Of a stretch of 64,000 bases of DNA, positions 9,117 to 24,974 are shown piece by piece (position 1 is the first letter of the stretch; each line of letters starts with the position of its first letter). Where the stretch lies: positions 1,240,001 through 1,304,000 of the forward strand of contig JAGTPG010000001.1 of assembly GCA_018195615.1 (NCBI GenBank). The letters run 5' to 3'. A program made the position numbers and the translations under genes. The notes below the pieces were generated by a model. It worked only from the letters and a program-made list of their open reading frames with translations. It did no database searches and was not told where the DNA came from. The DNA is from Streptomyces tuirus. Its GTDB lineage: Bacteria; Actinomycetota; Actinomycetes; Streptomycetales; Streptomycetaceae.

Positions 9117-12100
9117 TTAGGCGAAAGCAATGGATGTGCACCAGGTGAAGCAGGCCGTCCCGGCTGCGTGCGCGACGACGAATCCCGTGGCACAGGCCGC
9201 TATCGAGGAGACGGCGGTGGGCAGGTGGTAGGGCTCAGCCAGCTGCCGCCGGGTCTCGAGGTCCCAGACCACGACACGCTGGTCCTCACCTCCACCGACG
9301 GCGAGGACGCGGCCTCCTGGCAGCGTCGCCGTGGCCAGTGCGGTCACCCGGCGCCGCAGACCGGTGAGTGGTTCGGCCACTCCTGGGCGGTCGAGGTCCC
9401 ACACGCGGACCTCGCCCCCGTCCCCACCGGACAGCGCCACCCTCCGCTCCCCGGGCAGCACGGCCGTGGCCACCGCCTGAATCCGTCCACCGCGGCGGGT
9501 CAGGGCCGCCACCTCGTGACCGGTCGTCACGTCCCAGACCAGCAGGGCGCCCGCGCGGTCACCGCTGATCGCGACCCCGGGCGGCGTGGCACCGCCGTCG
9601 GCCAGGGCCATCGCCAGTATCCAGTCGCCGTGCCCGGTGAAGGTGCCGAGCCCCGCCCCCGTCCGCAGGTCCCACACCGTCGCTGCGGCGTTGTCCCCGC
9701 CGGCGACCAGAACCTGCCGGCCATCCGCGGCGCGGCCCACCGCCAGCGCCCTGATCCGTCCCGTCCCGTCGGGAAACCTGCGGACCACGGTGCCACCGGT
9801 CAGCTCCCACATCCGCAGGGAACCGTCCCGGCCGCCCGCCACGACGACCGGACCCAGGTCCGGCAGCTCGGCCGTCACCAGCGCCCGCACCAGCAACCGC
9901 CGCCCCGAGTCGTCCAGCGTGTGCCTGCGGTCGCCCGTCGCCAGGTCCCACACCTCCGCGCGTCGCTCACCGCCCCCGGCGACGCACAGGGCGGGCCCCT
10001 CCTCGGGCACGGCGACGGCCACCGCCTCCATGACCTCCTCGTGCCCGGTCTCCGGGACGTCCGGGCGGGCGTCCGCGACGTCCCAGACGACGGCGTGCGC
10101 GTCGGCACCGCCGCTCACCGCCACGAGACGCTCCCCGATCAGCGCCACGTCGACGCTGTGCACACCACCGGGATGCGCGGCGAACACGTAGGTGCGCCGG
10201 CCCGTGCCGAGGTCCCACACGGCGACGCGGCCGTCGGCGCATCCCGTGACGACCCACCCGCGCTCACCGTCCCCGCCGAGCGCGAGGCAGGTGATCACCC
10301 CGTGGCCCGCGGTCACCAGCTCGTGCAGCCGCCGGCCCGAGTCGAGGTCCCACACCAGGACGCGCCCCGCACGGTCACCGCTCACCGCGATGTGCCGTTC
10401 GCCGACGGTGCCCGTGGCCAGGCGGGTCACCCGGTCCCCATGCCCCCTCAGCCTGTGCAGCCTGCGCCCGTCGGCCGCGTTCCACACCAGCACCCGCCCG
10501 TCGTAGCAGCCGGTGACGGCCACGACCGTGCCGCCACCCAGCGTCGCCGTGGCCACGGACCGGACGAAGTCGGCGTGTGGGCCGAGGGTGCGCAGCCGCT
10601 GTCCTGTCCGCATGTCCCAGACCCGGGCCGACCGCTCCTCCCCCACGGCGATCGCGACCGGGGTGCCGTCCGGCAGGCGCGCGGCGGCGATCGCCGAGAC
10701 CAGCACCATCGAGCTGTCCAGCCGGGTCGGCCTCCCGTCGTCCGGGTTCCACAGGAGCACCTCGTGGCGGTGCCCGGCGGCCACGACACGGGTGCCGCCC
10801 TCCGGGAGGGTGACGGTGCCGAGCGTCCGGATCGGTCCGATGCCGCCCGCCCGCCGATGGACCCGGTCGCCCTCGCGCAGGTCGTGGACGTACAAGTGGC
10901 CGTCCTCCCCTCCGGAGACGAGGACGTGGCGTCCGTCGGCGAGCCGGGCCGGCGCGATCGCCCGGGCCGGGCCCGACAGACCGTCGAGGGGGCGCAGGAT
11001 CCTGCCGCTGAGCGGGTCCGACAGCCGTGTCCGGTGGGTGTCCCCGGTGCTGACGACGGCGTACGTCCCGTCGCTCTCCGTTTCCCCCTTCCCGTCGCCG
11101 CCCGGCACCTGAGTGAGCATCACCTGGGAGACCGGCCCTCCGTGCGGACCGAGGGTCTGCAGCCGTGCCGTGTTCGCTGTCCGGCTGACGGCCCAGACCG
11201 GCCGGGCCGACGCCGGAGGCGGACCCGGCTGGGAGGCCAGCAGGTCGGACAGCCCGGTCTCCCGCCACACGGTCGCGTCGAGGCACAGCAGGTCCCGCCG
11301 TACGGCCGTGATGTGCCGGAGCGGATGGTGTGCCGTGGTCTGGCGGTAGACGTCGGCGTGCGTTCGGGCCTGGTCACCGCAGGCGCGGTGCAGGTGCCGT
11401 ACGAGTCGCTCCGGGTCGGCGTGCAGCAGGTACGACACGTCCTGGAGCAGCGCGTCCAGTCGGTCCGGGCCGGCGTCGGCCGCGTGGTCCGCCGCGTGCC
11501 GCCGCAGGTATCGGTCCGCCCTGGACCAGTCCCGTACACCGCGTTCGGCCGGCACGGTCGACAGCAGGGCGTCCAGTACGACGTGGGGGTCCGTGCGCGC
11601 TTCCATGTGCTCGGCGAGCGCCTGGTGGAAGAAGCGGTAGAGCTTCCCGTCGTCCACGCCGTCGACGTCGACGGCCGGGCCGGCACCGGAGTCGTGGGTG
11701 GACCGGAGATAGAACCGCGCCCCGGTGAGCGCCTCCCGCGTGTCCCGCGGCCGCGGCGTCAGTGCTCCGTCACGGGCCTCGGGGCGCAGCGCGAGGGCCA
11801 CCTGGTGCACCAGGCGGGGCGGCATGCCCGGCCCGGCCGCCCGGGCGAGCGCCGCCAGCACCGCGCCGGCCCAGGGCAGTTCGGCGGTGAGCGTGCCCAG
11901 GCTCAGCTCCAGCATGCCCGGCAGATCGCACGGCAGGTCCCGGGCGATCTCGGCCTTGGACAGGCGCGTGCCCGCCTGGGCGAGTGCGCGCAGGTGCGCG
12001 CCGTACACAGCCGCGGTCAGGAACGCCCCGTGCTCGGCGGGGCCCGACAGGCGAAGCGCGATCATCTCCGTCACGTCGGAGGAGTAGTCGGTGTCCAGGA

Positions 12101-13630
12101 GCCGGCCCAGGTACGTGCCCAGGTGCTCGGCCAACGACGCGGGTTCCTCCGCGTCGAGGTCCAGGAGTCGACCGGGCCGGCCGGTGACAGCGGCGTGCAG
12201 GTCGGGCAGGCTGTCCGGCCACAGCCGGGTGCCGATCAGCACCCGGCAGCCGGGCACCGGATCGCCGGCTTCGCCCGTCAGCGGCAGCAGCACGTGCCGC
12301 AGCAGCCCGTCGGGGTCGCCGGCCTCGTCGAGCGCGTCGAGTACGACGGTGACGTCCCCGACCGCACGCAGCGCGGCGGACAGTTCCTCGAAAGTCGTCT
12401 TCGCCGCCTCGGCCCGCACATGCCCGCCTCCGTCCTGCTGCCTGGGCGGGCGCAGTGCCTGTACCTGCCGGTGCAGCGAGTCCACGACGTCCTGGGTGGA
12501 CAGGTCGTGGGCGTGCACGGCCAGCAGCCGGGGGTTCTGCGGGGGACGGAAGTGGTGCAGGCCGAGGCGGTCCCGCAGGGGACGCAGCCGGGGGTGGACG
12601 GTGCACACCGTCGCCCCGAGGAGTGCCGACTTCCCCGCGCCGGGTCTGCCGGTGACGACCAGCAGACGGTGCTGCCGGGCCCGGGGGGCGCCGAGCCACT
12701 CCTCGATGCGCCTGAGCTCGGTGCGGCGCCCGCTGAAGAAGAACGCCTCCGCGTCCGGGGTGCCGGCGGCCCGGGCGGCGAAGTGGTGCAGGTCCAGCCG
12801 GGGTCCAGTCTCTCGGCGTATCGCCGCAGCGCCGCGACCGCCTCGGCCTGGAACTGCTCCTCGGCCTCGACGGCGTGGTGCGGGTTGCGGAGGAAGGGAG
12901 CCGGGGCCTGGGACGCCTCGTCGTGCTTGGTGCACACCACGTCCTGCCTCGGCATGCCCGCGGCGGTGTCGATGCGCGCCAGTTCCTCGTCGATCTGCTC
13001 CGCCAGCAGGGTCACGGGAACGTGCTCCAGGTGGGGTGGGACGTCCAGGAGGCGGCGGGCGATGCGGTCGACCACCGTCGCGGTCGCCTTGCTGAAACGC
13101 GCTCCGTAGGTGATCTCCCGGGCACCACAGGCCGCGATCACCCAGGCGTTGCGGCTCTCCATGCCGAGCAGGCGCTGGGTGAGCTGGGAGGTGAGGGCCG
13201 TACCGCCGCCGCACACGTCGAGCAGGAACAGGACCGGCCCGCCGTCTTCGTGTTCGACGTCCCGGAGCAGTTCGTCGACGTCCACGCTGGTCCTGCGGAT
13301 GCCGTTGGGGACCGTCGTGGTTCCCTTCATCGCCAGGTAGAGCACGGGCCCGACCGTCTGCGCATGGCCGCTGAAGTGCACCACGAGGGGATGTGGGCCG
13401 CTCCGTTCACGCGCCGTCCGCCACGCGACGCGGAACTCGGCGGGTGTCGGGTCGAACAGCGGCTCGGTGACCTCGAGGCCGGCTCGACGCAGCGCGTGGG
13501 CGACGTTCCGTACGGAGTCGTCCACACTCGGCAGGGGTTCGAGCGGAAACACCCCCGCGGCCTCTTCCTCCTCGGTCGGCACGCGCGCGGGGAAGCCGCC
13601 CGCGCCCACCACGAGTGCGTGCACTGTCAC
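9117..13630 (-). CDS. Caspase-like / P-loop STAND / WD40 protein, one-base frameshift
   Basis: When one base is restored at 12800-12803 the gene encodes about 1,504 aa. Residues 1-250 are a caspase-like (C14) protease: His in VVHFSGHAQ (about 87) and Cys in FLLDVCGGGTA (about 137) form the expected dyad. Next comes a NACHT/STAND NTPase with Walker A GRPGAGKSALLG (about 325) and Walker B VTVVLDALDE (about 427), then a helical linker, then about 13 WD40 blades (repeating VWDL/VLVWDL signatures) from about residue 820 to the C-terminus, probably two propellers. By analogy with NLR/APAF-1-like proteins, WD40 sensing would trigger NTPase oligomerisation and caspase activation. The GTG at 13630 follows GAGGGGG. 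It is the last gene of a three-gene operon with the HExxH enzyme. Confidence 0.9.
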
Positions 13631-13688
13631 GGCCGTGTTCCCCCTCCGTACCGCATGAGTCCGCGGACGTGCGCCCGCCCTGCCGGGA

Positions 13689-14570
13689 TCAATCCGCGAG
13701 GTGGGGCGCGAGCGCGGCCGCGGTCAGTCCGGCCGAGAGATAGCCGCCGAAGGTGTGGGGATCGAAGACGCCGATGTCCGTGGTCGCGTGCGCGTCGACC
13801 GGGAAGGCACCGCCCAGCTCCCGCGGCACTGCCAGCAGGTCGCCCACGTCGGCGATGTTCACCCAGCGCCGCACGCCGGGGGGCCGCGTGCCGCGCCCGT
13901 CGACGGGTTCGGGGTCCAGCTTGCGCCGGAGCGCGGGGAGCCCCAGCGGCGAGCCGAGAGTGAGCAACAGGTCGAGTTCCAGGTCCGGGTGGGCGTGCAG
14001 CGTCTCGTACGCGACCACGCTGCCCAGCGAGTGAGCCACCACGACCCGTGCGTCGTGGTCGCGGACGGCCTGGGCCACGGTCGCCCGAACCGCCTTACGG
14101 CGACCGGGACGCGAGGTGTAGGCATCGGTGTCCTGAAGCAGGGCCACCACGAGGCGCGACAGCAGTTCCGCCAGCCGCTGCCGGGCCGCGGGCGGCGCGT
14201 CCCCGGCACGCTGGTCCACGAGCCGGTCGACGGCCCACCGCAGCGGCGAGAGCACGCCGGCCTGGCCCTCCCGGGGCCGTGCCACTCCGGCCGTCTCCAG
14301 CCATTCCCACGCCTCGCCCTCCTGGACGGACGTCAGGTCCTCCAGGGCGCCCGCACCCGCGGACTGCTGTTCGGGCCGGTAGTCATCGGCGAGCTGGTGG
14401 GCGTAGTACGCCATGACCAGCTCGGGCACCGGCACATGGGACAGTCCTGCCGCGCCCAGCCCCTTGCGCAGCCGGTCCGCCGCGGCGGCGGCCTTGAGTT
14501 CCGCGGCCTGCTGCGGCGACGCGCCCCGCACGAGGTTGCCGATACCGTGCACGAGCACCACGGTTCCCAT
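13689..14570 (-). CDS. Alpha/beta hydrolase, lipase-like
   Basis: A 293-aa protein that opens directly with TVVLVHGIGNLVRG, the first strand and oxyanion loop of lipase-type hydrolases. The nucleophile elbow is VVAHSLGSVVAYETL (GxSxG variant AHSLG); the acid (NIADVGDLLAVP) and a histidine in DPHTFGGYLS complete a plausible triad. No signal peptide, so the protein is cytosolic. It lies between the HExxH enzyme (107 nt upstream) and the caspase-STAND gene (58 nt downstream), all on the minus strand, and is probably co-transcribed. It may cleave an ester or peptide bond, or act as an effector, within this conflict/RiPP-like locus; the substrate is unknown. Confidence 0.83.
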   Translation of the reverse strand: MGTVVLVHGIGNLVRGASPQQAAELKAAAAADRLRKGLGAAGLSHVPVPELVMAYYAHQLADDYRPEQQSAGAGALEDLTSVQEGEAWEWLETAGVARPREGQAGVLSPLRWAVDRLVDQRAGDAPPAARQRLAELLSRLVVALLQDTDAYTSRPGRRKAVRATVAQAVRDHDARVVVAHSLGSVVAYETLHAHPDLELDLLLTLGSPLGLPALRRKLDPEPVDGRGTRPPGVRRWVNIADVGDLLAVPRELGGAFPVDAHATTDIGVFDPHTFGGYLSAGLTAAALAPHLAD

Positions 14571-14677
14571 CCCCCACCACCCCCATGGCCCGGTCCAAGA
14601 CCTGATGTGGGGAGTCTTGTACCCCGTGCGCGGCCCCGCCCAACACCGGTGGCCGAGGGGCGGGACGTCGGCGCGCC

Positions 14678-16030
14678 TCAGCTCTCCGTCCGCCCGGCCC
14701 GGTTCCGCTTCGACCAGCGCGCGCGGTGGGCCTCCGCCTGCCGCCGTGCCTCCCGCACGGCGGACCGCGGCAGCGGCACGGTGCGCAGCTCGGCCAGGGC
14801 CTGGCCCATGGTGGCGACGAACCGGCGCCCGGTGTGCGTCAGTCCGCTCGGGTCGGCCAGCATCGCCTCCTGCGTTTCGGAAGCCGCCTCACGCCACCGG
14901 GCACACCGCACATGTGCCCGATGCCGCTCCGCCGGGTCGGACACGAAGCCGGCCTCCCGGGACCAGAAACGGGCCACGGACAGAAAGGCGTACGTGCCGT
15001 GCAGCAGGCCGTACAGCGGCCTCGGGTCGTCCCGCCACGGCGCGTAGTACCGCGCTCCCGGCTCCGCCGCACTCGGCTCGGCGAGCAGGTCGACGAGGTG
15101 CATCACGGCGGCGAGCTTGCTGTGCTGCATCTCGTGGACCAGCGTCTCGGCCAGGTCGCGGGCGTGCGTGGGCCGGGACAGTGTCACTCCGCCGAACATC
15201 TCGGCCGCGCTTCCGCTGTGCCGCGCCCGCGAACCCTCGGCGACGGGCACCGGAGTCAGTGTGCGCAGGCCTGCGTCCAGCTCCGCGGCGTAGTCGGCGT
15301 GCCGGTCCCGCAGCAGCCGCATCGCGCCCTCGGCCGTGGACCGCCAGACGCGCAGTTCGTCCTCGGGCAGCCGGTACGGTCGATCCGCGGCCGTCACCAC
15401 GACCTGGTCCACATCGTCGACCAGGAAGGACGACTCCGGTCCCGCGGTCGCGCCCCGCAGCGGCCACCAGTCGGCCCGCTCGGCACCGAGCGCCGTCGTC
15501 GGCGGGAGGCCCACCCGCAGTCCCGTCCCGGTTTCGAGGACACCGCCCAGGCGGTTGACGCGCAGCAGCAACGGGGTACCGGGGGCGGTGTCCGGCAGGC
15601 GGACCGCCCCCAGCCCGGGCAGCACGACTCCCGGTGGGGCGACGGTCAGACCGATCGAGACGTCCAGGCCGGTGGCGGTGGCGGCAGCGGCGGCCACCGC
15701 GGCCAACGGCAGGGGGCCGGCGGCCGACCCGTTCCCGTCGAGCGCCCGCCAGGTCGTCACCAGTCGTGGCCCCACCGCAGGGTGACGGAGGATGCGCCGG
15801 GTCACGTCCGGCGCCGTGCGCCAGGCGTCGGCGAGCACGCCGAACAGCCGGCTCATACCGCGCCCCGTGTCTCCGCCGTGCTCTCCGGCCCGGTCCAGCA
15901 CGGCCCTGAGCAGCAACAGCCGCCGGCTGTACTCGCTGTCGCGGAGCAGCCGGACGGTCTCGGCGCCCCCGCCGCCCCGGGCGAGTGCGGCGAGCAGCCG
16001 GCTGTCCAGGCGGTACGCGGACGGTGTCAC
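14678..16030 (-). CDS. HEXXH-motif putative peptide beta-hydroxylase (aKG-HExxH type)
   Basis: A 450-aa protein with the N-terminal signature LARGGGGAETVRLLRDSEY, followed by RRLLLLRAVLD, and a central ETLVHEMQHSKLAAVMHLVD carrying HExxH (about residue 298). This matches the HEXXH-motif family (TIGR04267-like) found beside FxSxx-COOH precursor genes. Recent work assigns members as iron/2-oxoglutarate-dependent peptide beta-hydroxylases, whereas the same domain fused to FxsB radical SAM enzymes is often inactive; here the motif is intact. It is not expected to be a protease despite the zincin-like motif. The GTG at 16030 has only a weak ribosome site. It is divergent from the precursor-like gene at 16354 and first in the operon leading to the caspase-STAND gene. 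Confidence 0.82.
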   Translation of the reverse strand: MTPSAYRLDSRLLAALARGGGGAETVRLLRDSEYSRRLLLLRAVLDRAGEHGGDTGRGMSRLFGVLADAWRTAPDVTRRILRHPAVGPRLVTTWRALDGNGSAAGPLPLAAVAAAAATATGLDVSIGLTVAPPGVVLPGLGAVRLPDTAPGTPLLLRVNRLGGVLETGTGLRVGLPPTTALGAERADWWPLRGATAGPESSFLVDDVDQVVVTAADRPYRLPEDELRVWRSTAEGAMRLLRDRHADYAAELDAGLRTLTPVPVAEGSRARHSGSAAEMFGGVTLSRPTHARDLAETLVHEMQHSKLAAVMHLVDLLAEPSAAEPGARYYAPWRDDPRPLYGLLHGTYAFLSVARFWSREAGFVSDPAERHRAHVRCARWREAASETQEAMLADPSGLTHTGRRFVATMGQALAELRTVPLPRSAVREARRQAEAHRARWSKRNRAGRTES

Positions 16031-16353
16031 CGTCGCGTGTTGCGGAGTCAGGTCCGCTCCCGAAGCCGTGCGGTGTCCTTTGCGGGAGCGTCGCGCGCCA
16101 CTTCCGGCTCACCCGTTTCGGTATCCATCGAGCTCCCGTGTACGAACGAATTTGCGCTCCGAACCAGGAAGGTTTCCCGCGGCGAACCGGACGGCCCGAG
16201 GACCGCCCGAAGCGTCGCACTTGTCGGTAGACTCATTCGAGTCTGACAGCAAGTCATCGGTTTGGCAGCCGAGTTGAGCGGCCACACCACAACTGTCCGG
16301 CAGTCCTCCACGTGTGGCGGATTCTCGACTCAATCGGGACGGCGGGGCTCCGT
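16031..16353. promoter_or_regulatory. Divergent promoter region of the HExxH/FxsA-like locus, with a 16-bp palindrome at 16229-16244
   Basis: This 323-nt region separates the two divergent operons and is visibly less GC-rich than the flanking genes. It contains the inverted repeat AGACTC-ATTC-GAGTCT at 16229-16244, with a further GACTC half-site near 16327. Control of both operons from one operator is an inference. No reading frame here looks coding. Confidence 0.45.
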
Positions 16354-16635
16354 ATGAATGATCTGACCAAAACGCGGGACGTGCTGGATTCTCCCTTGGT
16401 TGATCTTTCGAATTTTCCCTTGGACGCAATCCGGTCACTGCCCGAATCCGTGATAGTGAGGGCCTTGCGGCGTGTGCGGCAGGAAGCGGCACACCCCGAG
16501 GCCATGTTCACCACGAATCACGAGAAGGACCCCGGGGCGGTGAAGCGCGGGAGGAGTGACCGCCCCGGCCCGCCCACCGCCCGTCCCCTGCGTCCGATCA
16601 CCACCGACGAAGCGAAGCGGAGCCGAGATGTCTGA
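16354..16635 (+). CDS. FxsA-like (FxSxx-COOH family) precursor-like peptide, C-terminally extended
   Basis: A 93-aa protein whose first 50 residues match the leader of FxSxx-COOH precursor peptides: DSPLVDLSNFPLDAIRSLP, then SVIVRALRRV. Where typical members end in F-x-S-x-x and a stop, this one has an MFTTNH segment at 51-56 and continues for about 37 further polar residues (KDPGAVKRGRSD..., ending KRSRDV). It lacks the canonical carboxy-terminus. Its stop at 16635 overlaps the start of the FxsT-like gene by 8 nt, so translation is coupled. Neighbours support the call: an HExxH peptide-hydroxylase gene lies divergently and an FxsT-like gene downstream. The product of modification is unknown. 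The ATG at 16354 is chosen by homology; a weak GGCGGGG precedes it. Confidence 0.7.
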   Translation: MNDLTKTRDVLDSPLVDLSNFPLDAIRSLPESVIVRALRRVRQEAAHPEAMFTTNHEKDPGAVKRGRSDRPGPPTARPLRPITTDEAKRSRDV

Positions 16636-19600
16636 GGCGGACGGCCGGATCTCCCGCCCCCGTGTGGCCGCGTTCTGTTCCACGGCGGAGGACATCGGCC
16701 AGACGACCACGCTGCTCAACACGGCCGTGCTGCTGGCCCGTTCGGGCCGCAGGGTGCTCGTGCTCGACGGCCGCAACGCGGATGTGCGCACCCGGCACTA
16801 CGTCCGCTCGGTCGCCCCGGCCACCGCCCTGCTGCCGGACGAGGAGGGCGGTCCGTCCGTGGAGGAGTGGTCTCCCTCCGGTGCGGTCCTTCCCATCGGA
16901 CTGGCGACCCTGAAGGGCCCGGATCCGCTGGCCGCGGTGTCCGGAGCGGGCCCGGATCATCCCGCCTTCCAGGGGTACGACGACGTGCTGATCGACGCAC
17001 CGCTGCCCCGTACCGAGCAACAGACCGCGCAGCTCGCACGGCTGCCGGATCTGCTCGTGGTCTGCTTCACCGCCGACTCCTCCTTCATCGAGGACGCCGC
17101 CGTGCTGGCCCGGAGCATCCTGCGGCACACCGACCGCTCCCTGGACGTCATCGCGCTGGCCCTGCAGACCGACTGGTCGCACGAGGACCAGTTGCGCATC
17201 GCCCGGGACCGGGTCGGGCCGAGCTTCGCCCGGCTCTTCGGCCGCCCGGTGCGCTACCTGGAAGTCCCCTACCACGCGATGTCGGCCCGCAGCACCCGGC
17301 TCGGCACGGAGCTGGACAACGGCAACGGCTTCGACGAACGGGTCCTGCCGTCTCTCGAACGCCTGGTCTCCGCCCTGGACCGGCCGCACCCGGTCGTGCC
17401 GGCGCACGTCACCCTCGTCCACACCTCGCGCCACGCGGTCTGGGCCGACTGGATCGGAGCCCAGCTGCGCGCCGTCGGTGTCGGCGTCGTACGGCGGACC
17501 TACGGCGGCTGGCGTCCCGAGCGCCCGGCGGACGACGCCGCCGTACTGCTGCTGCAGCCGACCACGGTGCGCCGGGAGGAACAGCGGGCCCTGCGGACCC
17601 TGTCCGACCCGGGGATCCGGATGGTGCTGGTGGACAGCGAGGCACTGCCGCCCGGGTTCGCCCACCACCAGCAGATCGACCTGCGCCGCCACGACGAGCA
17701 GCGGGCCGCCGAACTCCTGCTGAGCGGACTGTCGCTGCCGGTGCCGCGCCGTCCGCCGATCTCCCCCCACCGCTTCCCCAGCATCCCCAACCGCACCAAC
17801 ATCGCCGCCCGCAGCGTCACCTTCGTGGGCCGCGAGGCCCTGCTCGACGACATCCGCGAGGCGCTGCGCGGCGTCGCCGGCCAGGACCGCCCCTGCCTGC
17901 TCCTCGGCGCGCCCGGCGTCGGCAAGTCCGAGGCCCTGCTCGAGTTCTGCCACCGGTTCGGCGGCTCCTACGACGTCGTCTGGTGGTTGCGGGCCGACGC
18001 CCCCGAGAACGTCCGGGCCTCGCTCGCCGCGCTCGGTGACGCCCTCGGCGAACCCACCGCCCAGGAACTCAGCGGCCACATCCGGGCGCTGCGGGCGAAG
18101 GCCGACGAGACCGGCGAGCGCTGGCTGCTGGTCTGCGACGAACTCGACGACGTGGCGTCCCTGGGCGCCATGACGGACCTGCTGCCGACGCCGTCCGGCA
18201 ACTGCCACATCCTGTTCGCCGCACGTGACGGGAAGGGACCCGCGCCGGCCGGCGCCGTGCAGGTCGCCCCCTTCTCCCGGGGCGAGAGCGAGGCGCTGCT
18301 CCTGACGCTGCTGCCCGGGCTCACGCCCTCCCACGCACGGGACGTCGTCCACCGGGTCGGTCCGCTGCCGCTCGCTCTGCGCCTCGCCGCCTGCTGGATC
18401 GGGGCCCGGGCCACCCGGGTCGCGGAGAGGGACAACCTGAGCGGCGCCCAGGCCCGGCACTCCGCCGTCGAGGCGTTCCTCGAAGCCTTCACCGACCTGC
18501 AACAGACCTACGGCCCGGGCGCGCTGGCCGGGACACAGATCCTGCTGCGCATGGCTCGCTCCTCCGTCCGCTCCAGCCCGGCGGCCGAGGCGTGGTCGCA
18601 CGAACCGGCGGGTGTCGCGGCGCTGAACTGGCTGATCGACGCCTGCGCGCTGATCACCGGCGCGGGCGTCGACCTGCGGATGCTGCGCTCCCGGTCCATG
18701 AGAGCGGCGCTGGCGCAGGCAGGTCCGGATCACACCGCGGACGGGAAGCCGGTCCGCCCGGCAGACGTCCTCCTCGTCGACGCCGCGTTGTGGGCACTGC
18801 ACCAGCACGGGCTGGTCGAGTTGGACTTCGCCCGCCCCGGACAGCCCGTCCGCCAGCACCGGGTGCTGCGGGAGCTCATCGTGGCCGGACTCGGCGGTGA
18901 GCCGCGCATCGAAGGGCAACTGCGCGCGGCGCTCAGCGACAACCTGCTCGGCATGGCCGACAGCCCCGCCCCGCCCGACTCCGAGACCATCACCCGGCGC
19001 GGCAGACAGATCGACGCGCTGCGGCTCTGGGAGGACGCCCGCCCCGCGGTACGGCAGTCGCTGTTGAACCACCTGGCCGACCTCGTCCGCACCCAGGAGG
19101 AAGAGGCGCTCAAGGAGTGTCTGCGCCTGGGCCGGCTCGCACTCCAGGGCTGGACGGAACACGACTCCCTGGAGCACCGGCGGCTGCGCGCCCTGCTGTC
19201 CGACGCGCAGCACCTGCGGGGCGAGTACGCGGAATCCGGCAGTCTCGCCCTCGGCGTGCTGCGGGAGTACCGGGGGAACCTCGGTCTCAGCCACCCCCGC
19301 TCCCTGCAGATGGCCGACAGTTATGCGGCGAACCTGGGCTCCGCGGGCCATGTGGGCGACGCCCTCGACGAGGCTCTGCATGTCGCCCGCTGCATGGCGA
19401 GGCTGCTGGGCCCGCGGCACGGCAGCACCGAGCGGGTCCACCGCAACCTCGCCTGGTGCTACGCCGCCGCCGGCGACTACGCCGAGGGCATGCGGCTGTA
19501 CCGCCAGGTCTACGAACAGCGTCGGGCCATCGGCGGCGACGACGACCCCGCCGTCCGGGACATGGTCCCCTGGCTGGCCGAGATGCACCGCCTGCTCGGC

Positions 19601-20302
19601 CAGGACGCGGAGTCGTACCAGTTGCTCAGGCACGGCTGGACACCGCGCAGCACGTCGGGGCCCGCGATCAACCGCGTACCGATCACGGTCGTGGCGGAGA
19701 ACGGGCTCGCCGTGAGCGAGCGCAGGCTCGGCGATCCCGACCGGGCCTGGGAACGCGACACCCGGGCCCTGGACATGGCCGTCAGCGTGCTGGGAGAGCA
19801 GCACATGATCACCCAGCGATGCCGGTTCAGCCTCGCCATCGACCACCATCTGCTGGGCGAGCACGAACCAGCGGTGGAGTACGCCGAGCGCTGTCTGAAC
19901 ACGCTGGCGGGCCGGTTCGGCCCCGACCATCCGTCGACCCACGTGTGCCGTACGCGCCTGGGCGTTCATCTGCGCGGGGCCGGCCGGCTGGAGGAGGCCC
20001 GCGAGGTCGGCCTGGCCGCGAACAGCGGACTCGAGGCGGTACTCGGCGGCCGGCACCCCTGGACCCTGGCGTCCGCCGTCGCCCTGGCGGGAACCCTGGT
20101 GGCGGGCGGAGCCCGGGAGGCGGCGGCGGAGCTGGAGGAGACCGCCCAACGCGGCTACGACCACCTCGGCCTGAACCGGCACCCGGCCAGGGCGATCGCC
20201 GCCGGCAACCTCGCCCTGACCCGCGCCGAGCAACGGGGCGCGGCGGGCAGCGGCGAACTCCCCCGGGCGCGCCGCGACATCGACGTGGAACTGATGGTGT
20301 GA
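16628..20302 (+). CDS. FxsT-like protein: SIMIBI NTPase / TIR-like / NB-ARC / TPR
   Basis: A protein of about 1,224 aa. Residues 10-220 resemble a MinD/ParA-type SIMIBI domain with a degenerate P-loop (STAEDIGQTTTLLNTA) and DDVLIDAPLP. About 258-370 resembles a TIR-like fold (VTLVHTSRHAVWADWIGAQL). An NB-ARC module follows, starting FVGREALLDDI with Walker A GAPGVGKSEAL (about 427) and WLLVCDELDDV. A tetratricopeptide array occupies about 845-1200. This is the layout of the tetratricopeptide proteins of FxSxx-COOH systems (FxsT). NLR-like architecture suggests a sensor or signalling role rather than catalysis in peptide maturation; this is inference. The ATG at 16628 overlaps the precursor-like gene by 8 nt. 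Confidence 0.83.
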   Translation: MSEADGRISRPRVAAFCSTAEDIGQTTTLLNTAVLLARSGRRVLVLDGRNADVRTRHYVRSVAPATALLPDEEGGPSVEEWSPSGAVLPIGLATLKGPDPLAAVSGAGPDHPAFQGYDDVLIDAPLPRTEQQTAQLARLPDLLVVCFTADSSFIEDAAVLARSILRHTDRSLDVIALALQTDWSHEDQLRIARDRVGPSFARLFGRPVRYLEVPYHAMSARSTRLGTELDNGNGFDERVLPSLERLVSALDRPHPVVPAHVTLVHTSRHAVWADWIGAQLRAVGVGVVRRTYGGWRPERPADDAAVLLLQPTTVRREEQRALRTLSDPGIRMVLVDSEALPPGFAHHQQIDLRRHDEQRAAELLLSGLSLPVPRRPPISPHRFPSIPNRTNIAARSVTFVGREALLDDIREALRGVAGQDRPCLLLGAPGVGKSEALLEFCHRFGGSYDVVWWLRADAPENVRASLAALGDALGEPTAQELSGHIRALRAKADETGERWLLVCDELDDVASLGAMTDLLPTPSGNCHILFAARDGKGPAPAGAVQVAPFSRGESEALLLTLLPGLTPSHARDVVHRVGPLPLALRLAACWIGARATRVAERDNLSGAQARHSAVEAFLEAFTDLQQTYGPGALAGTQILLRMARSSVRSSPAAEAWSHEPAGVAALNWLIDACALITGAGVDLRMLRSRSMRAALAQAGPDHTADGKPVRPADVLLVDAALWALHQHGLVELDFARPGQPVRQHRVLRELIVAGLGGEPRIEGQLRAALSDNLLGMADSPAPPDSETITRRGRQIDALRLWEDARPAVRQSLLNHLADLVRTQEEEALKECLRLGRLALQGWTEHDSLEHRRLRALLSDAQHLRGEYAESGSLALGVLREYRGNLGLSHPRSLQMADSYAANLGSAGHVGDALDEALHVARCMARLLGPRHGSTERVHRNLAWCYAAAGDYAEGMRLYRQVYEQRRAIGGDDDPAVRDMVPWLAEMHRLLGQDAESYQLLRHGWTPRSTSGPAINRVPITVVAENGLAVSERRLGDPDRAWERDTRALDMAVSVLGEQHMITQRCRFSLAIDHHLLGEHEPAVEYAERCLNTLAGRFGPDHPSTHVCRTRLGVHLRGAGRLEEAREVGLAANSGLEAVLGGRHPWTLASAVALAGTLVAGGAREAAAELEETAQRGYDHLGLNRHPARAIAAGNLALTRAEQRGAAGSGELPRARRDIDVELMV

Positions 20303-20354
20303 ACCACAGGCACAGTGCCCGCATCCGTCGTCTGCCGTAAGGAGTTGCACCTAG

Positions 20355-21329
20355 ATGAACCCGGACGCCTCGGCGGCGGTGAGCGAGCCCAGGCTCCTGA
20401 GCGTGCCGCAAGTAAGCCAGAGCTACGGCCACCTGAGCAAGGAGTGCCGTACCACGGTCGCGGCCTGCCCGGAGATCCGGTCCATGACCCACGTCGTCAG
20501 CAACACCGTCGTCTTCGCCGTTCGCGAAGCCGACGCCGTGCCGTTCTCCGGCGGGCTGCCCTGGGAGGACGAGGCCGACACCGAGGGCCGGCCGGGGCGC
20601 CGGCTGGTCCGCTGGGTCCTGGAGACGGAAGAGGTGATGCGGCGGCTCGACGTGGGCGATCTGATGCGGACTCTCGTCGTCACCCCGGAAGGCGGAATGC
20701 AGTGTTCACGTCTGCACTCCGCCCAGTACCTGGTGGGCATCAGCGCGTCCGGGCCGGGCTGCGACGTCATGGACACGAGCATGAACCGGCTGGTCAGCAA
20801 GATCAGGTCCGAGCGTCACATGGTCGACGAACTGCCCGGCGGCCGCCCGGGGGAGGTGAAGGAGCCGTTCGTCCAGGGGGGCTCGCTGTTCATGCACGTC
20901 CTCACCCGCGACTCGCAGGAGGCACAGCGGCTGCGGGGCGTATGGCACCGCCATCTCAACCCCGGCGACCTGCACTACGCGGCCTACTATCGCGACTGGT
21001 CGCTGGTGTGTTCCGGCGACGCCTTCGAGCACCAGGAGCTGGAGGACTCCTTCGCGGTCGTCTCGGTGGCGGCCCGCCGGGCGATATACCGCGACCTCGT
21101 CAGCCGCCTGCGTGAGGAACTGACGGATCTGGCGGGCATCATCGCCCCCGTCACCCGTGCTCCGATCCGACGCCTGGTCCTCGACGTCGTCGACGGGGCC
21201 TTCTACATGCACTGGCTGGGCGACGCGGAGGGCGACTTCGTCGTGGGAGTCACCTTCCGCCAGCCCAAGGTGGGCGTGGCGGAGGAGCGCCTGCGTGATC
21301 TCATCGCAGAGGTGCGGGTCCCTCACTGA
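20355..21329 (+). CDS. Uncharacterised protein, third gene of the FxsA/FxsT-like operon
   Basis: A 324-aa soluble protein that I do not recognise. Coding is supported by strong third-position GC bias, a good AAGGAG at about 20339-20344, and position 52 nt after the FxsT-like gene. Visible features are two conserved-looking blocks: THVVSNTVVFAVREAD near the N-terminus and VLDVVDGAFYMHWLGDAEGD near the C-terminus (about 277-300), and the acidic SFAVVSVAARRAIYRDLVSRL. There is no signal peptide, membrane segment or P-loop. Its 3' end overlaps the convergent NTPase gene by 29 nt. A role with the upstream signalling protein is likely from operon context only. Confidence 0.8.
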   Translation: MNPDASAAVSEPRLLSVPQVSQSYGHLSKECRTTVAACPEIRSMTHVVSNTVVFAVREADAVPFSGGLPWEDEADTEGRPGRRLVRWVLETEEVMRRLDVGDLMRTLVVTPEGGMQCSRLHSAQYLVGISASGPGCDVMDTSMNRLVSKIRSERHMVDELPGGRPGEVKEPFVQGGSLFMHVLTRDSQEAQRLRGVWHRHLNPGDLHYAAYYRDWSLVCSGDAFEHQELEDSFAVVSVAARRAIYRDLVSRLREELTDLAGIIAPVTRAPIRRLVLDVVDGAFYMHWLGDAEGDFVVGVTFRQPKVGVAEERLRDLIAEVRVPH

Positions 21330-24300
21330 ACGCTTCACCCAGCTCACGCAGCACCCGGTCGGCGAGGTGTGCGAGCAGGTCCTGCGCCCTCTCACCGGGC
21401 TCCGTCGCGGGGGCCGGCGGGCCGCTCAGCGGATCGGCGGCGCCCCGGTCCAGGCGGGGCAGCGACTCCATCGAGATCTCGAAGCCTCGGCAGATGGCGA
21501 ACAGTTCCCCCTGGTCGCGTCCGGCGGGTTCCGGGTCACTGCCGGCCGCGTCGGTCTCCCACCAGCCGACGATCGCCTCGCGGAACGCCTCCAGCAGCCT
21601 GCGGGCCAGCACGACCGCTCCCATGTTCCGCAGGGCGGAGTCGTCGACGAGCAGCCGGCGCGGCCGCGGCGGCCGTCCGGCGGCGGTGCGGGCGACGGGC
21701 ACGAGGCTGATCCGCGGCCCCTCCCCCTCCTCCAGCAGCCGGTCCAGCGCTTCCTGGGCTTCCCGGAAATGCGCCCGCACCGGCACCGGCACCCGCTCCC
21801 CCGACCGGTCGGCCATCGGCGGCGAGGAGACGACACGCGGGTTGTCGAGAGTGCGGTCGATGCTGTCGACGCGTTCCAGGAGGGTCTGCTGCTGTCCCTG
21901 GAGGACGTCGAGCCGGTTGGACATCTTCTCCAGCACGGTGTTGTCCTGGCTCGCCCGCAGCCGCCCGGCCAGGCTCTGGACACCGCTGCGCAGTGCGGTG
22001 TCGAAGCGGGGGTCGTCGAGCACCAGGGGCATGGTCCCGGTGACGTCGGCGACCTGCCGGCGCATCTGCCTGCAGGCGTGGCCGTTGACCACGACGAGCA
22101 TCTCGATGCTGTACCCGGCCGCGGCGTCGCGCGCGTGGCCGAGGAAGTCCGCGATGCCGGCGATGCCGGCCCGAGTCAGCAGTGAACGCACCGGCAGCAG
22201 GACGATCCACGCCGTACGGGTGACCTCGATCCAGCGGGGCTCGCCCGAGCCCGGCGGTCCCGGCAGGTCCCCCAGGTCACGCGGCGGCACGTTGTGCCAC
22301 CACTGGTCGCCGGCGAGTACGCGTTCCAGCCGACGTGCCGCCTCCCCCATCGGCCGCTTCTCGTGGGTCGTCCGGATCGCCTCGTGCACGGCTTCGACGT
22401 CGATCTTCGAACTGTGTCCGAGCGCCGCGTGGTCCCAGGCTCCTTCGCAGATCCGCAGGATCTGCCGGGGCACCCCGTCGGAGAGGGTCACGATCTGCGC
22501 CACGGCGGGGTCGGAGAACGGCGCGCAGGGCTCGCTCAGCGGCCTGCGCCCCGACCGGAGCAGGTGCTGTTTGATCAGCTCCTCGGTCGCGGGGCGCTCC
22601 CAGCTGTCGAGCCACAGCGGCAGCACCCGCTCGTGCAGGGAAGCGGGCAGGGAGCCCCAGAGGTCGGGCCGGACGCAGAAGATCAGCAGGCCGCCCTGGT
22701 TGACGTACCGGTTCACCAGCATCTCGAAGGCGTTCAGGAACAGCGCCCGGTCCAGCGCCGTCCATTCGACGATCTTGTCCACCTCGTCCAGCACCAGCGC
22801 GTACGGTCGCCCGCTCTGTCCGTAGACGAGGCTGAACACCGAGAACGCTTCGAAGACACCCTGGATGCCCTGGATCGGCTGGGTGACACCGCGCTGTTGC
22901 AGGGGGGCCGCGGGGCCTCGCCGGACAGCCAGCGCCAGACGTCCGCCTGGTACGCCTGGTTGGGGAGCAGGGCGAACGCGGTGGCGAAGGCCCGGTGGTC
23001 GGTGACGCCCCGCAGGTGCCGGCGGAGATGGCTGTGGATGAGCTCCTCGTCGAGGTCGAAGGCCCGCGCGATCTTCTGCGGATCCAGCCTCCGGTCCCTC
23101 AGGCCGCGCAGGAAGTCGTCACGAGCGACTCCCAGTCGGCCGGTGTCGTCCTGTTCCAGCAGCTCAGCCGTGACGTCCGCGTAGAAGTCGGTGATGGCCT
23201 GCATGAAGTCGGCCATGGCTTCGAGATCGTCGCGAGGGCTCATGACGCGGTGCTGGAAGACGGACCGCATGTCCACCGAGGGCTGACCGATCACCCACAG
23301 CGCGGGCATGGGGTCGCTCTGCCTGAGGATGTCCGTGACCTGGGCGGCGAGGTGGCTCTTGCCCAGTCCGAACTCGCCGACGAGGGCGAGGACACGGCCC
23401 CTGGTCGAGGAGTCTCCGGTGTGCTGGAGGTAGCGCTGCACCTGTTCCATGAGCTGTTCGTTGATCCGCCTGCGCACATGGATGGGCGGACGCGGGGGAC
23501 CGGTTCCGACCTGGGTGGTGTCGGCGAATCCCTCCAACTGGACGCTCGTACTGCCTCGGAAGGGGTTCTCCCCCGCGACCGGGAAGGCGTCAGGGCTCAT
23601 CTCGTCGGTCCTCTTCGTCATCAGGAAGTTCATTCGGTTCGAGACCGGCCGTCTCTGGTGGTTCCTTCGCGGGTCGTCCGGATCGGACAGGCCCCTTCTC
23701 AGGAAGTGGTCCGGGTTCGGTTGCTTCCTGTCGAACCGGAGGACTACGCGGTTTCGCCGCAAGTAGGCCTCGTCGGCCTGCAGTGCTTCGTCCGCCGCCT
23801 CACGCAGAAAGGTCTGGAGTTTCGAAATGCTGACGAAGACCCAGGGCTCCGGCTCGCAATCGAGCAGATCGTCATGGATGGCGATCTTCGGGTTCGGAAT
23901 TCCCGGAAGTTCCATCCACAGCCGCAGATACCTGCCCCAGTCCTCCCGGGCGAGCGCTCCGGTCTTGAGGTGCGTGACACCACGCCGTTGGGATTCATTG
24001 AAAATCAGGCCGATCTCTTTATCCAGCTCGGTGTACTCCGTCTCGACGAAGAAGACCACCCCGCGGTCGGCCTTCTTGTGACAGAACCGGAGGAAGTCCC
24101 AGCGGGAGCCCTGATCCTCCCACTGAATGTGCGGAATGATCACGGCGAGTCTGCGGCCCAATCGCCCCAGCGCGTCGGTGAGAGCGAGCCAGGAGTCGAA
24201 GTGGTCGGGCGAGTCGATCTCCGGACGGCAGACTTCTTCGAATCCGGGCGTTTCTCTCAGCTCGGCCACGACCGTGCGGACGATGCGCTTGATCACCGTG

Positions 24301-24788
24301 GGCAGCTCCGGCGCCTCCGTGTGCCCGCTGGGCGACGACTCCAGGTCGCGCCCGTTGTTCCGCACGCCGGTGACCGGCACGATGGAGATCGAATCCGACG
24401 GACCGCGATGGCGCCACCGCGTCGGCCTGTCGCCGCCCTCTTCGGCGTCGGGCCGTTCGGCGTCGCCGCCCTCGCGCTCTTCGAACCCTCTGACGAGCTC
24501 GTGGACGCACTGGTGGAGGAGACTGCTCTTGCCCGTGCCGGGCAGTCCGCTCACCACCACCAGGTGCCCGCGGCCGTCCCGGCCCGGGGTGATGCTGCGC
24601 GCCACTTGTATGAGCTGGTTGCGAAAGGCGTGCACCGCCGCGGGCACGTGATCGAGCTCCACCCACAGGTCTTCGTGACCTTCGATGCACCATGGCACCA
24701 GCGGCTCGTACGGGAGCCACGGCGGCTCGCCCCCGCGGGAGGCGTTCCGAACATGTTGCACTGGATGAATGGCATGGTGTTCCCCCAT
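21301..24788 (-). CDS. Large protein with two P-loop NTPase modules, one-base frameshift
   Basis: With one base restored in the G run at 22902-22907 this gene encodes about 1,162 aa. Module 1 has Walker A VVSGLPGTGKSSLLHQ (about 80). Module 2 has Walker A LVGEFGLGKSHLAAQ (about 473) and Walker B YALVLDEVDKI (about 666), followed by a helical arginine-finger-like region (LLIFCVRPDLW). The C-terminal third contains NTVLEKMSNRLDVLQGQQQ and QTLLERVDSIDR, likely coiled coil. The ATG at 24788 (MGEHHAIHP) follows GGAG; upstream in-frame codons are arginine-rich and look non-coding. STAND/ORC-like NTPases of this kind occur in conflict systems. It is convergent with the FxsT-like operon. The precise family is not recognised. 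Confidence 0.82.
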
Positions 24789-24974
24789 GTTCGTGCTCCG
24801 GGCGTCCCGTCCCCTTGGATCGCCCGGTGTGGTACGTGTCGTGCGGTGTCGCCGGGCGGCCCGGTGCCGTTCGCAGCCGTCGCTGATCGCCCCACGCCTC
24901 CCCCTCCTGCCCATCGGCTCTCTTGAGCCGCCGCAGCCCTTCTCAGGGCGATCCCCTCCGCGGCGGCCGGCTAC

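What the first reader, a model, noticed from the sequence alone, without database searches (positions are those of the whole stretch)
16354..16635. FxsA-like precursor without the FxSxx carboxy-terminus and without a radical SAM partner
The leader-type block (SPLVDLSNFPLDAIRSL ... RALRRV) is typical of the family, but the core ends with MFTTNH followed by about 37 extra polar residues, not F-x-S-x-x-stop. No FxsB radical SAM gene is visible in the window. A peptide hydroxylated by the HExxH enzyme but not cyclophane-linked would be a variant of the known class.
Basis: partly seen in the sequence, partly recalled or inferred. Interest (0 to 1): 0.75.

Follow-up and report, generated by a model that had tools for sequence, protein, structure and literature searches.

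The report
FxsA peptide locus missing its cyclase
A Streptomyces small-peptide system has lost, by a clean internal deletion, the radical enzyme that would cross-link its peptide, yet its predicted peptide-hydroxylating enzyme is still kept intact by selection; the peptide's strange long tail is mostly a sequencing slip.

Summary
The precursor, the non-FxSxx end and the missing FxsB are real. The 37-residue extension is mostly an artefact: close orthologues stop 12 residues after the core (…MFTTNHEKDPGGGEAQKE), the window lacks one base near 16536, and its last 32 residues are out of frame. The assembly has many indels; even rpoB changes frame three times.

The odd C-terminus does not explain the missing FxsB. 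Orthologous loci with FxsB have the same kind of precursor (FTTNH, FHTNY, FTTDY, each with a tail). FxsB was lost later: window, S. paradoxus, S. massasporeus and one unnamed Streptomyces share an in-frame deletion that leaves a 26-37 codon scar. None of the four genomes has an FxsB over the family cut-off.

The aKG-HExxH beta-hydroxylase gene beside the scar is not decaying: dN/dS after the loss is 0.35-0.42 (six pairs), against 0.43 in an FxsB-bearing pair of like divergence, and 42 of 43 residues invariant in 24 FxsB-bearing homologues are kept. Best reading: a standalone FxsA/FxsT system whose peptide is now beta-hydroxylated as a linear peptide, without the cyclophane. The chemistry is inferred, not shown.

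The parts
16354..16635 (+). FxsA-like precursor ORF as read (93 aa); by comparison with orthologues the true gene ends at the TGA at about 16557-16559
16507..16521 (+). core F-T-T-N-H (residues 52-56), of an [FY]-x-T-x-[HY] type
16534..16537 (+). place of the missing base relative to L020, L021 and L022; everything after it is out of frame
   Evidence: assembly-error control
16048..16128 (-). fxsB scar ORF, 26 aa: first ~15 codons of FxsB joined in frame to its last 11 codons; about 383 of ~409 codons gone
   Evidence: alignment with L021 fxsB and with the scars of L020, L022, L127
14678..16030 (-). aKG-HExxH-type peptide beta-hydroxylase (450 aa, HEMQH), directly downstream of the fxsB scar
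16628..20302 (+). FxsT-like protein: weak MinD/CbiA-like match at the N-terminus, TIR-like stretch (below cut-off), STAND/AAA ATPase, TPRs; its start overlaps the out-of-frame end of the precursor reading
20355..21329 (+). conserved neighbour of unknown family (324 aa), present in L020-L023 and L025
13689..14570 (-). conserved alpha/beta-hydrolase-like neighbour (AHSLGS by eye; no family above cut-off)
9117..13630 (-). caspase (EACC1-associated type, 39.7 bits against a cut-off of 140), AAA and WD40 protein, broken by a one-base deletion at about 12804 in this assembly
21301..24914 (-). conserved neighbour gene(s), ATPase-like by eye (no family scan except PADLOC, no hit); reading frame broken by a one-base deletion at about 22911 in this assembly
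16219..16254 (.). 16-nt imperfect inverted repeat with perfect inner AGACTC-ATTC-GAGTCT in the divergent intergenic region; candidate operator

Best explanation
This is a standalone FxsA/FxsT conflict-type system of Streptomyces. The small precursor carries an N-terminal leader-type block (SPLVDLSNFPLDAIRSLPESVIV...RALRRV), an [FY]-x-T-x-[HY] core near its C-terminus and a short polar tail. In the ancestral state FxsB cross-links the Phe-containing core into a cyclophane and the separate aKG-HExxH enzyme adds a beta-hydroxyl to a neighbouring residue. In the clade of this window fxsB was removed by an in-frame internal deletion, which leaves a 26-37 codon scar ORF upstream of the HExxH gene. 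The HExxH enzyme, the precursor core and the NLR-like FxsT protein are kept, so the most likely product now is a linear peptide with beta-hydroxylated T54/N55/H56 residue(s) and no cyclophane, acting as a signal or trigger for FxsT. Shown: the precursor, the frameshift, the shared fxsB deletion, absence of FxsB over the family cut-off in the four genomes, purifying selection on HExxH after the loss. Inferred: which residue is modified, that it happens on the linear peptide, and the biological role.
For: FxsB (447-461 bits) lies between HExxH and fxsA in L021, L023, L024 and L025, and beside fxsA in L026, whose stretch ends there; window, L020, L022 and L127 lack it. Scar ORFs in all four keep FxsB's N- and C-terminus in frame. 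Whole-genome searches, cut-off 370 bits: own 28.2, L020 genome no hit, L022 genome 28.7, L127 genome 30.2. Trees of HExxH (0.998), FxsT (0.980) and the 20355 gene (0.943) separate the four from L021 plus outgroup, so one loss on their stem (the 20355 tree and the FxsT and HExxH trees have 7 rows each). HExxH dN/dS is 0.35-0.42 in the six post-loss pairs (dS 0.17-0.24), 0.43-0.46 in the four pairs of these with L021, and 0.43 in the FxsB-bearing pair L023-L024 (dS 0.25). Neutral simulation: 44-70 amino-acid changes seen against 178-226 expected, 0 of 300 simulations as low, in each of six post-loss pairs. 42 of 43 residues invariant in 24 FxsB-bearing homologues are kept in all four, HExxH and PWRxDPRP included. 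aKG-HExxH enzymes that hydroxylate peptides with no cyclophane partner described exist: PflC/PosC (PMC12636437, abstract and three sections read), PesO (PMC13060819, abstract and passages read).
Against: The HExxH enzyme nearest in kind that I found described (ChlH) is said to need a preinstalled cyclophane (PMC12636437 introduction; the original paper is not held). The precursor itself shows no clear constraint beyond the core: fxsA dN/dS 0.77-1.72 in five of six pairs of window, L020, L021, L022, on 2-4.5 silent changes, and 0 in L020-L022. One post-loss genome reads FTTNQ, so His56 is not strictly kept. Phe52 is also kept in all four, which a purely linear product would not obviously require. 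The hydrolase tree puts the window with L021 (0.985), so some recombination occurred. L020's and L022's genomes are drafts of untold completeness and the own assembly is rated 85% complete, so an FxsB in a gap is not excluded. The AlphaFold model of HExxH was too poor to use (mean pLDDT 42.9). No expression or mass data.
Confidence: 0.55

Rival explanations
1. The system is in decay: fxsB was lost first, and HExxH, fxsA and the rest are on the way out or kept only because the proteins have other uses.
For: fxsB deletion in four genomes; fxsA shows little constraint; core His changed to Gln in one.
Against: HExxH dN/dS not raised after the loss (0.35-0.42 against 0.43 in an FxsB-bearing pair); far fewer amino-acid changes than neutral; 42 of 43 invariant residues kept. 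The absence of stops is no argument: 0.6-0.8 were expected.
Confidence: 0.2
2. The cyclophane is still made, by a radical SAM/SPASM enzyme of another family encoded elsewhere; the local fxsB was redundant.
For: Phe52 and the F-T-T-N core are kept in all four post-loss genomes; in G351, whose locus also lacks fxsB, an FxsB lies elsewhere in the genome (422.6 bits).
Against: No hit to the FxsB model over cut-off in any of the four genomes; the best own-genome hit is a MoaA-type protein (label from recall). I searched the FxsB family only, not every radical SAM/SPASM family.
Confidence: 0.15
3. The HExxH protein is a peptidase that cuts the precursor, as first proposed for these loci, and no oxygenation takes place.
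For: Kaur et al. 2020 (PMC7159879, section 24 and passages read) call the zincin-like gene a metallopeptidase that frees a C-terminal peptide; PflC shows hydrolysis without its leader (PMC12636437, abstract and discussion read).
Against: NCBI's model now names the family aKG-HExxH-type peptide beta-hydroxylase (TIGR04267, 174 bits); it aligns with ChlH 8s5f (residues 287-359) and, over residues 2-410, with 22nu; the PWRxDPRP stretch is invariant.
Confidence: 0.1

Closest known systems
FxSxx-COOH / FxsA-FxsB peptide systems (TIGR04268, TIGR04269)
   Same: Leader-type block, neighbourhood with FxsT (NF040586) and HExxH; orthologous loci carry a bona fide FxsB.
   Different: Core is F-x-T-x-[HY] with a C-terminal tail, not F-x-S-x-x-COOH; in this clade fxsB is deleted.
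Standalone peptide-processing systems with AP-ATPase and inactive MinD/ParA-like domain (Kaur et al. 2020, PMC7159879, section 24 and passages read)
   Same: Same gene set in outline: small precursor, zincin-like HExxH, AP-ATPase/TPR protein with MinD/ParA-like N-terminus, actinobacterial.
   Different: That section lists FxSxx, RxD, acidic and FtsH-associated peptides; it describes neither the F-x-T-x-[HY] type nor loss of the radical SAM gene (its source data were not seen).
ChlB/ChlH fused radical SAM and aKG-HExxH proteins (Morishita et al. 2024; seen only as cited in PMC12636437 and PMC13060819)
   Same: aKG-HExxH enzyme family; sequence match to ChlH 8s5f (31 bits) and to 22nu (85 bits).
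   Different: Here the enzyme is separate from FxsB, and FxsB is gone; ChlH is said to need the cyclophane.
PflC/PosC and PesO (PMC12636437, PMC13060819)
   Same: aKG-HExxH enzymes modifying precursor peptides without a cyclophane partner described.
   Different: Different precursor classes and MNIO partners; Gln or Pro targets.

Membership tests
FxSxx-COOH precursor (FxsA, TIGR04268) | leader-type block matching the profile | tested here: met
   profile 1-34 of 44, E 3e-6
FxSxx-COOH precursor (FxsA, TIGR04268) | score over curated cut-off of 28 bits | tested here: inconclusive
   27.4 bits by hmmscan, 28.4 with neighbours in the frame; of six relatives scanned (L020 25.3, L021 18.8, L023 29.8, L025 24.4, L083 15.8, L084 37.4) 2 of 6 pass, and L082 (15.1) does not
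FxSxx-COOH precursor (FxsA, TIGR04268) | C-terminus F-x-S-x-x followed by stop | tested here: not met
   F-T-T-N-H then a 12-residue tail in close orthologues; but only 9 of 30 sampled genus members meet it to the letter
FxSxx-COOH precursor (FxsA, TIGR04268) | partner FxsB radical SAM/SPASM enzyme | tested here: not met
   no FxsB over cut-off in own genome; present in orthologous loci L021, L023-L026
aKG-HExxH peptide beta-hydroxylase (TIGR04267) | HExxH domain over curated cut-off | tested here: met
   174.3 bits against 40
aKG-HExxH peptide beta-hydroxylase (TIGR04267) | metal motif and invariant residues | tested here: met
   42 of 43 residues invariant in 24 FxsB-bearing homologues kept
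aKG-HExxH peptide beta-hydroxylase (TIGR04267) | aKG-dependent hydroxylation of the precursor | not testable with these tools
   needs expression and mass spectrometry
Standalone peptide-processing system (Kaur et al. 2020) | AP-ATPase/TPR protein with MinD/ParA-like domain next to precursor and zincin-like gene | tested here: met
   NF040586 587 bits; TPR_12 and AAA_16 over cut-off, TIR_2 and MinD/CbiA matches below cut-off

The most novel reading that the evidence does not exclude
The window clade is a natural knock-out of the cyclophane step: an FxsA-class peptide that is beta-hydroxylated as a linear peptide and still works with its NLR-like FxsT partner, so that hydroxylation rather than the cross-link would be the essential mark. 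FxsB-less loci seen elsewhere (L082, where the aligned core Phe is replaced by Leu though a Phe lies two residues before it; L139 and L141 in another family, whose genomes have no FxsB over cut-off) would then be repeated arrivals at the same hydroxylation-only state.
Probability: 0.35. Interest if true: 0.65.

Novelty: new variant of a known kind. Interest (0 to 1): 0.5.

Why it matters
It offers closely related Streptomyces loci (S. viridochromogenes with FxsB; S. paradoxus and S. massasporeus without) with nearly the same precursor, in which one can ask whether an FxsA-class HExxH enzyme needs the cyclophane at all, and what the peptide's modification does for an NLR-like bacterial protein. 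It also shows that an apparent long C-terminal extension was a frameshift in a poor assembly.

Tried and rejected
Rejected: that the 37-residue extension is a conserved follower region (residues 62-93 are out of frame). Rejected: that the core ends at a lost stop codon right after NH (the four close orthologues L020, L021, L022, L127 read on for 12 residues). Rejected: that the tail explains the absence of FxsB (FxsB-bearing L021 and L023-L026, and L059 and L074 of the classical set, have tails). Rejected: that the own-genome 28-bit radical SAM hit is an FxsB (MoaA-type sequence, label from recall).

PADLOC scan of eight window proteins gave nothing. A search in 199 relatives found no new close orthologue. 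One position (G394), invariant in FxsB-bearing homologues and changed in the five FxsB-less ones, sits beside alignment gaps and was not made into a claim. L025 and L026 were left out of both because HExxH is in two pieces or not in the stretch.

Full report
What is there. An ATG at 16354 opens a 93-aa reading that ends at 16635. Residues 16-49 match TIGR04268 (FxsA) positions 1-34 of 44 at 27.4 bits. The next gene on the same strand (16628-20302) is FxsT-like (NF040586, 586.6 bits), and the divergent gene 14678-16030 is an aKG-HExxH peptide beta-hydroxylase (TIGR04267, 174.3 bits). Pfam sees TPR_12 and a STAND/AAA region over cut-off in FxsT, and TIR_2 and a weak CbiA match below cut-off.

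The extension is mostly a frameshift. One genome-contig scan with FxsT gave nine loci: seven orthologous ones (L020-L026, 55-90% identity) and two distant ones (L027, L028, 26%). Alignment of the region upstream of FxsT shows that the window lacks one base in the stretch CCCCGG-GGCGG compared with L020, L021 and L022 (blastn places it at 16536 in all three). Those genes stop at …MFTTNHEKDPGGGEAQKE (L020, L022) and …MFTTNHDKGPSGGDVQEE (L021). L127, found later, stops at …MFTTNQEKEPGGGEAQKE. So the real tail after the core is 12 residues in these four, and residues 62-93 of the window reading are out of frame. The same comparison shows one-base deletions in the window against all three orthologues at about 12804, which breaks the caspase/WD40 gene, and at about 22911, which breaks a neighbour gene; another near 23671 lies close to a gene border, and a pair near 24731 and 24777 adds up to three bases. 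As a control I searched rpoB in the own genome: it comes in five pieces with three changes of frame and one internal stop, which a living cell cannot have. The assembly (2 contigs, 85.23% complete) is therefore rich in indel errors, and the fxsA frameshift is most likely one of them.

The FxSxx end is missing in the whole subfamily, FxsB or not. L023 reads LFHTNYTQQPDPPALP, L025 LFTTDYTQKPSTSPAGPAAE, L026 VQYNTNYEQVPRTSPPGPTRE, L083 IFTADYQDLI, and L084-L089 FVTGHxESx ends; all of these loci have FxsB. The common core is [FY]-x-T-x-[HY] (L083 deviates: F-T-A-D-Y; L127 ends it in Q), followed by a tail of 10-14 residues in L020-L026 and L127 and of 4 in L083-L089. In a survey of 199 genomes of the genus, 77 had a TIGR04268 match at E <= 1e-4. 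Of the 30 loci kept, 27 had FxsB in the roughly 3-kb stretch (not seen for L049, L050, L052). Their precursors: 9 end exactly F-x-S-x-x, 11 F-x-N-x-x, 7 have F-x-S-x-x and one or two more residues, one is Y-N-S-A-L, and L059 and L074 have Y-D-S-G-x with tails of 11 and 15 residues and FxsB present. A non-FxSxx end or a tail is thus not rare among FxsB partners.

FxsB was deleted in this clade. L021 has a 409-aa FxsB between HExxH and fxsA (454.8 bits), as do L023-L025; L026 has it beside fxsA where its stretch ends. The window, L020, L022 and L127 have at that place a short in-frame ORF: MDTETGEPEVARDAPAKDTARLRERT in the window, 37 aa in the others. Its start matches the start of L021 FxsB (MSTETGEPDVARE…) and its end matches the end (…AEDTARLRELA), so the middle, with all radical SAM and SPASM parts, was removed in frame; the window has lost 33 further bases. 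Whole-genome searches with TIGR04269 (cut-off 370 bits) gave 28.2 bits in the own genome, no match for L020's genome and 28.7 bits for L022's, and 30.2 bits for L127's. Trees with L023, L024 or L025 as outgroup group the four FxsB-less loci apart from L021 for HExxH (support 0.998), FxsT (0.980) and the 20355 gene (0.943); the hydrolase gene instead joins window and L021 (0.985), a sign of recombination. One loss on the common stem explains the data.

HExxH is still under selection. Pairwise dN/dS (Nei-Gojobori) for HExxH in the six post-loss pairs is 0.35-0.42 at dS 0.17-0.24; the four pairs of these with FxsB-bearing L021 give 0.43-0.46, and the FxsB-bearing pair L023-L024, at dS 0.25, gives 0.43. 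FxsT gives 0.24-0.33, 0.33-0.39 and 0.31 for the same groups. In a simulation in which four-fold-site changes of FxsT set the neutral spectrum, HExxH shows 44-70 amino-acid changes per pair against 178-226 expected, and none of 300 simulations per pair reached the observed value (six pairs, not independent). Absence of stops is not informative there (0.6-0.8 expected). Of 43 positions invariant in 24 FxsB-bearing homologues, 42 are unchanged in all four FxsB-less genomes, the HExxH and the PWRxDPRP stretch among them. The precursor is another matter: among window, L020, L021 and L022 its dN/dS is 0.77-1.72 in five of six pairs, on 2-4.5 silent changes, and 0 for L020-L022.

Other FxsB-less cases. 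G351 (L082) has HExxH and FxsT at 42-44% identity, no FxsB in the locus, and a precursor (…RPDFLLSTDTPDDK…) in which the aligned core Phe is Leu, with a Phe two residues before it; its genome does hold an FxsB elsewhere (422.6 bits). In the class, 59 of 394 genomes matched HExxH at E <= 1e-30. Of 18 loci fetched from other genera (L129-L146), FxsB was not found in the stretch of four (L137, L139, L141, L143). Their genomes: G690 and G659 have FxsB elsewhere, G699 (92% complete) and G430 (100%) do not over cut-off. The fxsA calls in L139, L141 and L143 are weak to moderate (E 6e-3, 3e-9, 1e-5).

Mechanism. By the literature seen here, aKG-HExxH enzymes hydroxylate His, Asp, Phe, Gln and Pro residues (PMC13060819, passages), ChlH after the cyclophane is made (PMC12636437, introduction), PflC/PosC in precursors with no cyclophane. 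Kaur et al. (PMC7159879, section 24) describe standalone peptide-processing systems with an AP-ATPase and an inactive MinD/ParA-like domain and propose that the peptide is a toxin or signal. The window system fits that outline. The most likely present state is a linear, beta-hydroxylated peptide acting with FxsT. The modified residue and the role are inference. That FxsB joins the core Phe to the residue two positions on is recalled, not read here.

Literature limits. The listings of the searches showed no paper on FxsB loss or on an F-x-T-x-[HY] FxsA type; subscription papers, Morishita et al. 2024 among them, are not held, so this is no proof of absence from print.

Noticed in passing
G000:C2 about 1658800-1662500 (L128, 6295-9986): A second HExxH locus in the same genome, apparently split by frameshifts, next to a caspase-like gene and a TPR protein; no convincing fxsA-type precursor and no FxsB found there.
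   Followed up: partly
window 16219-16254: Inverted repeat in the divergent intergenic region (AGACTC-ATTC-GAGTCT inside), arms kept and one spacer base changed in L021 and L022, degraded in L024; candidate operator.
   Followed up: partly
G000:C1:5859796-5863101: rpoB changes frame three times in this assembly; every short ORF or gene end called in this genome should be checked against relatives.
   Followed up: yes
window 16048-16128: The fxsB scar stays an open in-frame ORF (26-37 aa) in 4 of 4 genomes, ending just before the HExxH start; it may serve translational coupling.
   Followed up: partly
L141 (G430) and L139 (G699): HExxH plus a possible fxsA-like precursor ending RFGGYST or RFSGFSKQGKLS, without FxsB over cut-off in the genome, in another family of the class.
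   Followed up: partly
window 9117-13630 and 20355-24914: Caspase/AAA/WD40, hydrolase, an unknown 324-aa protein and further genes align colinearly beside fxsA/FxsT in L020 (window 9658-24856), L021 and L022, and in pieces in L023 and L025, as if one larger cassette.
   Followed up: partly
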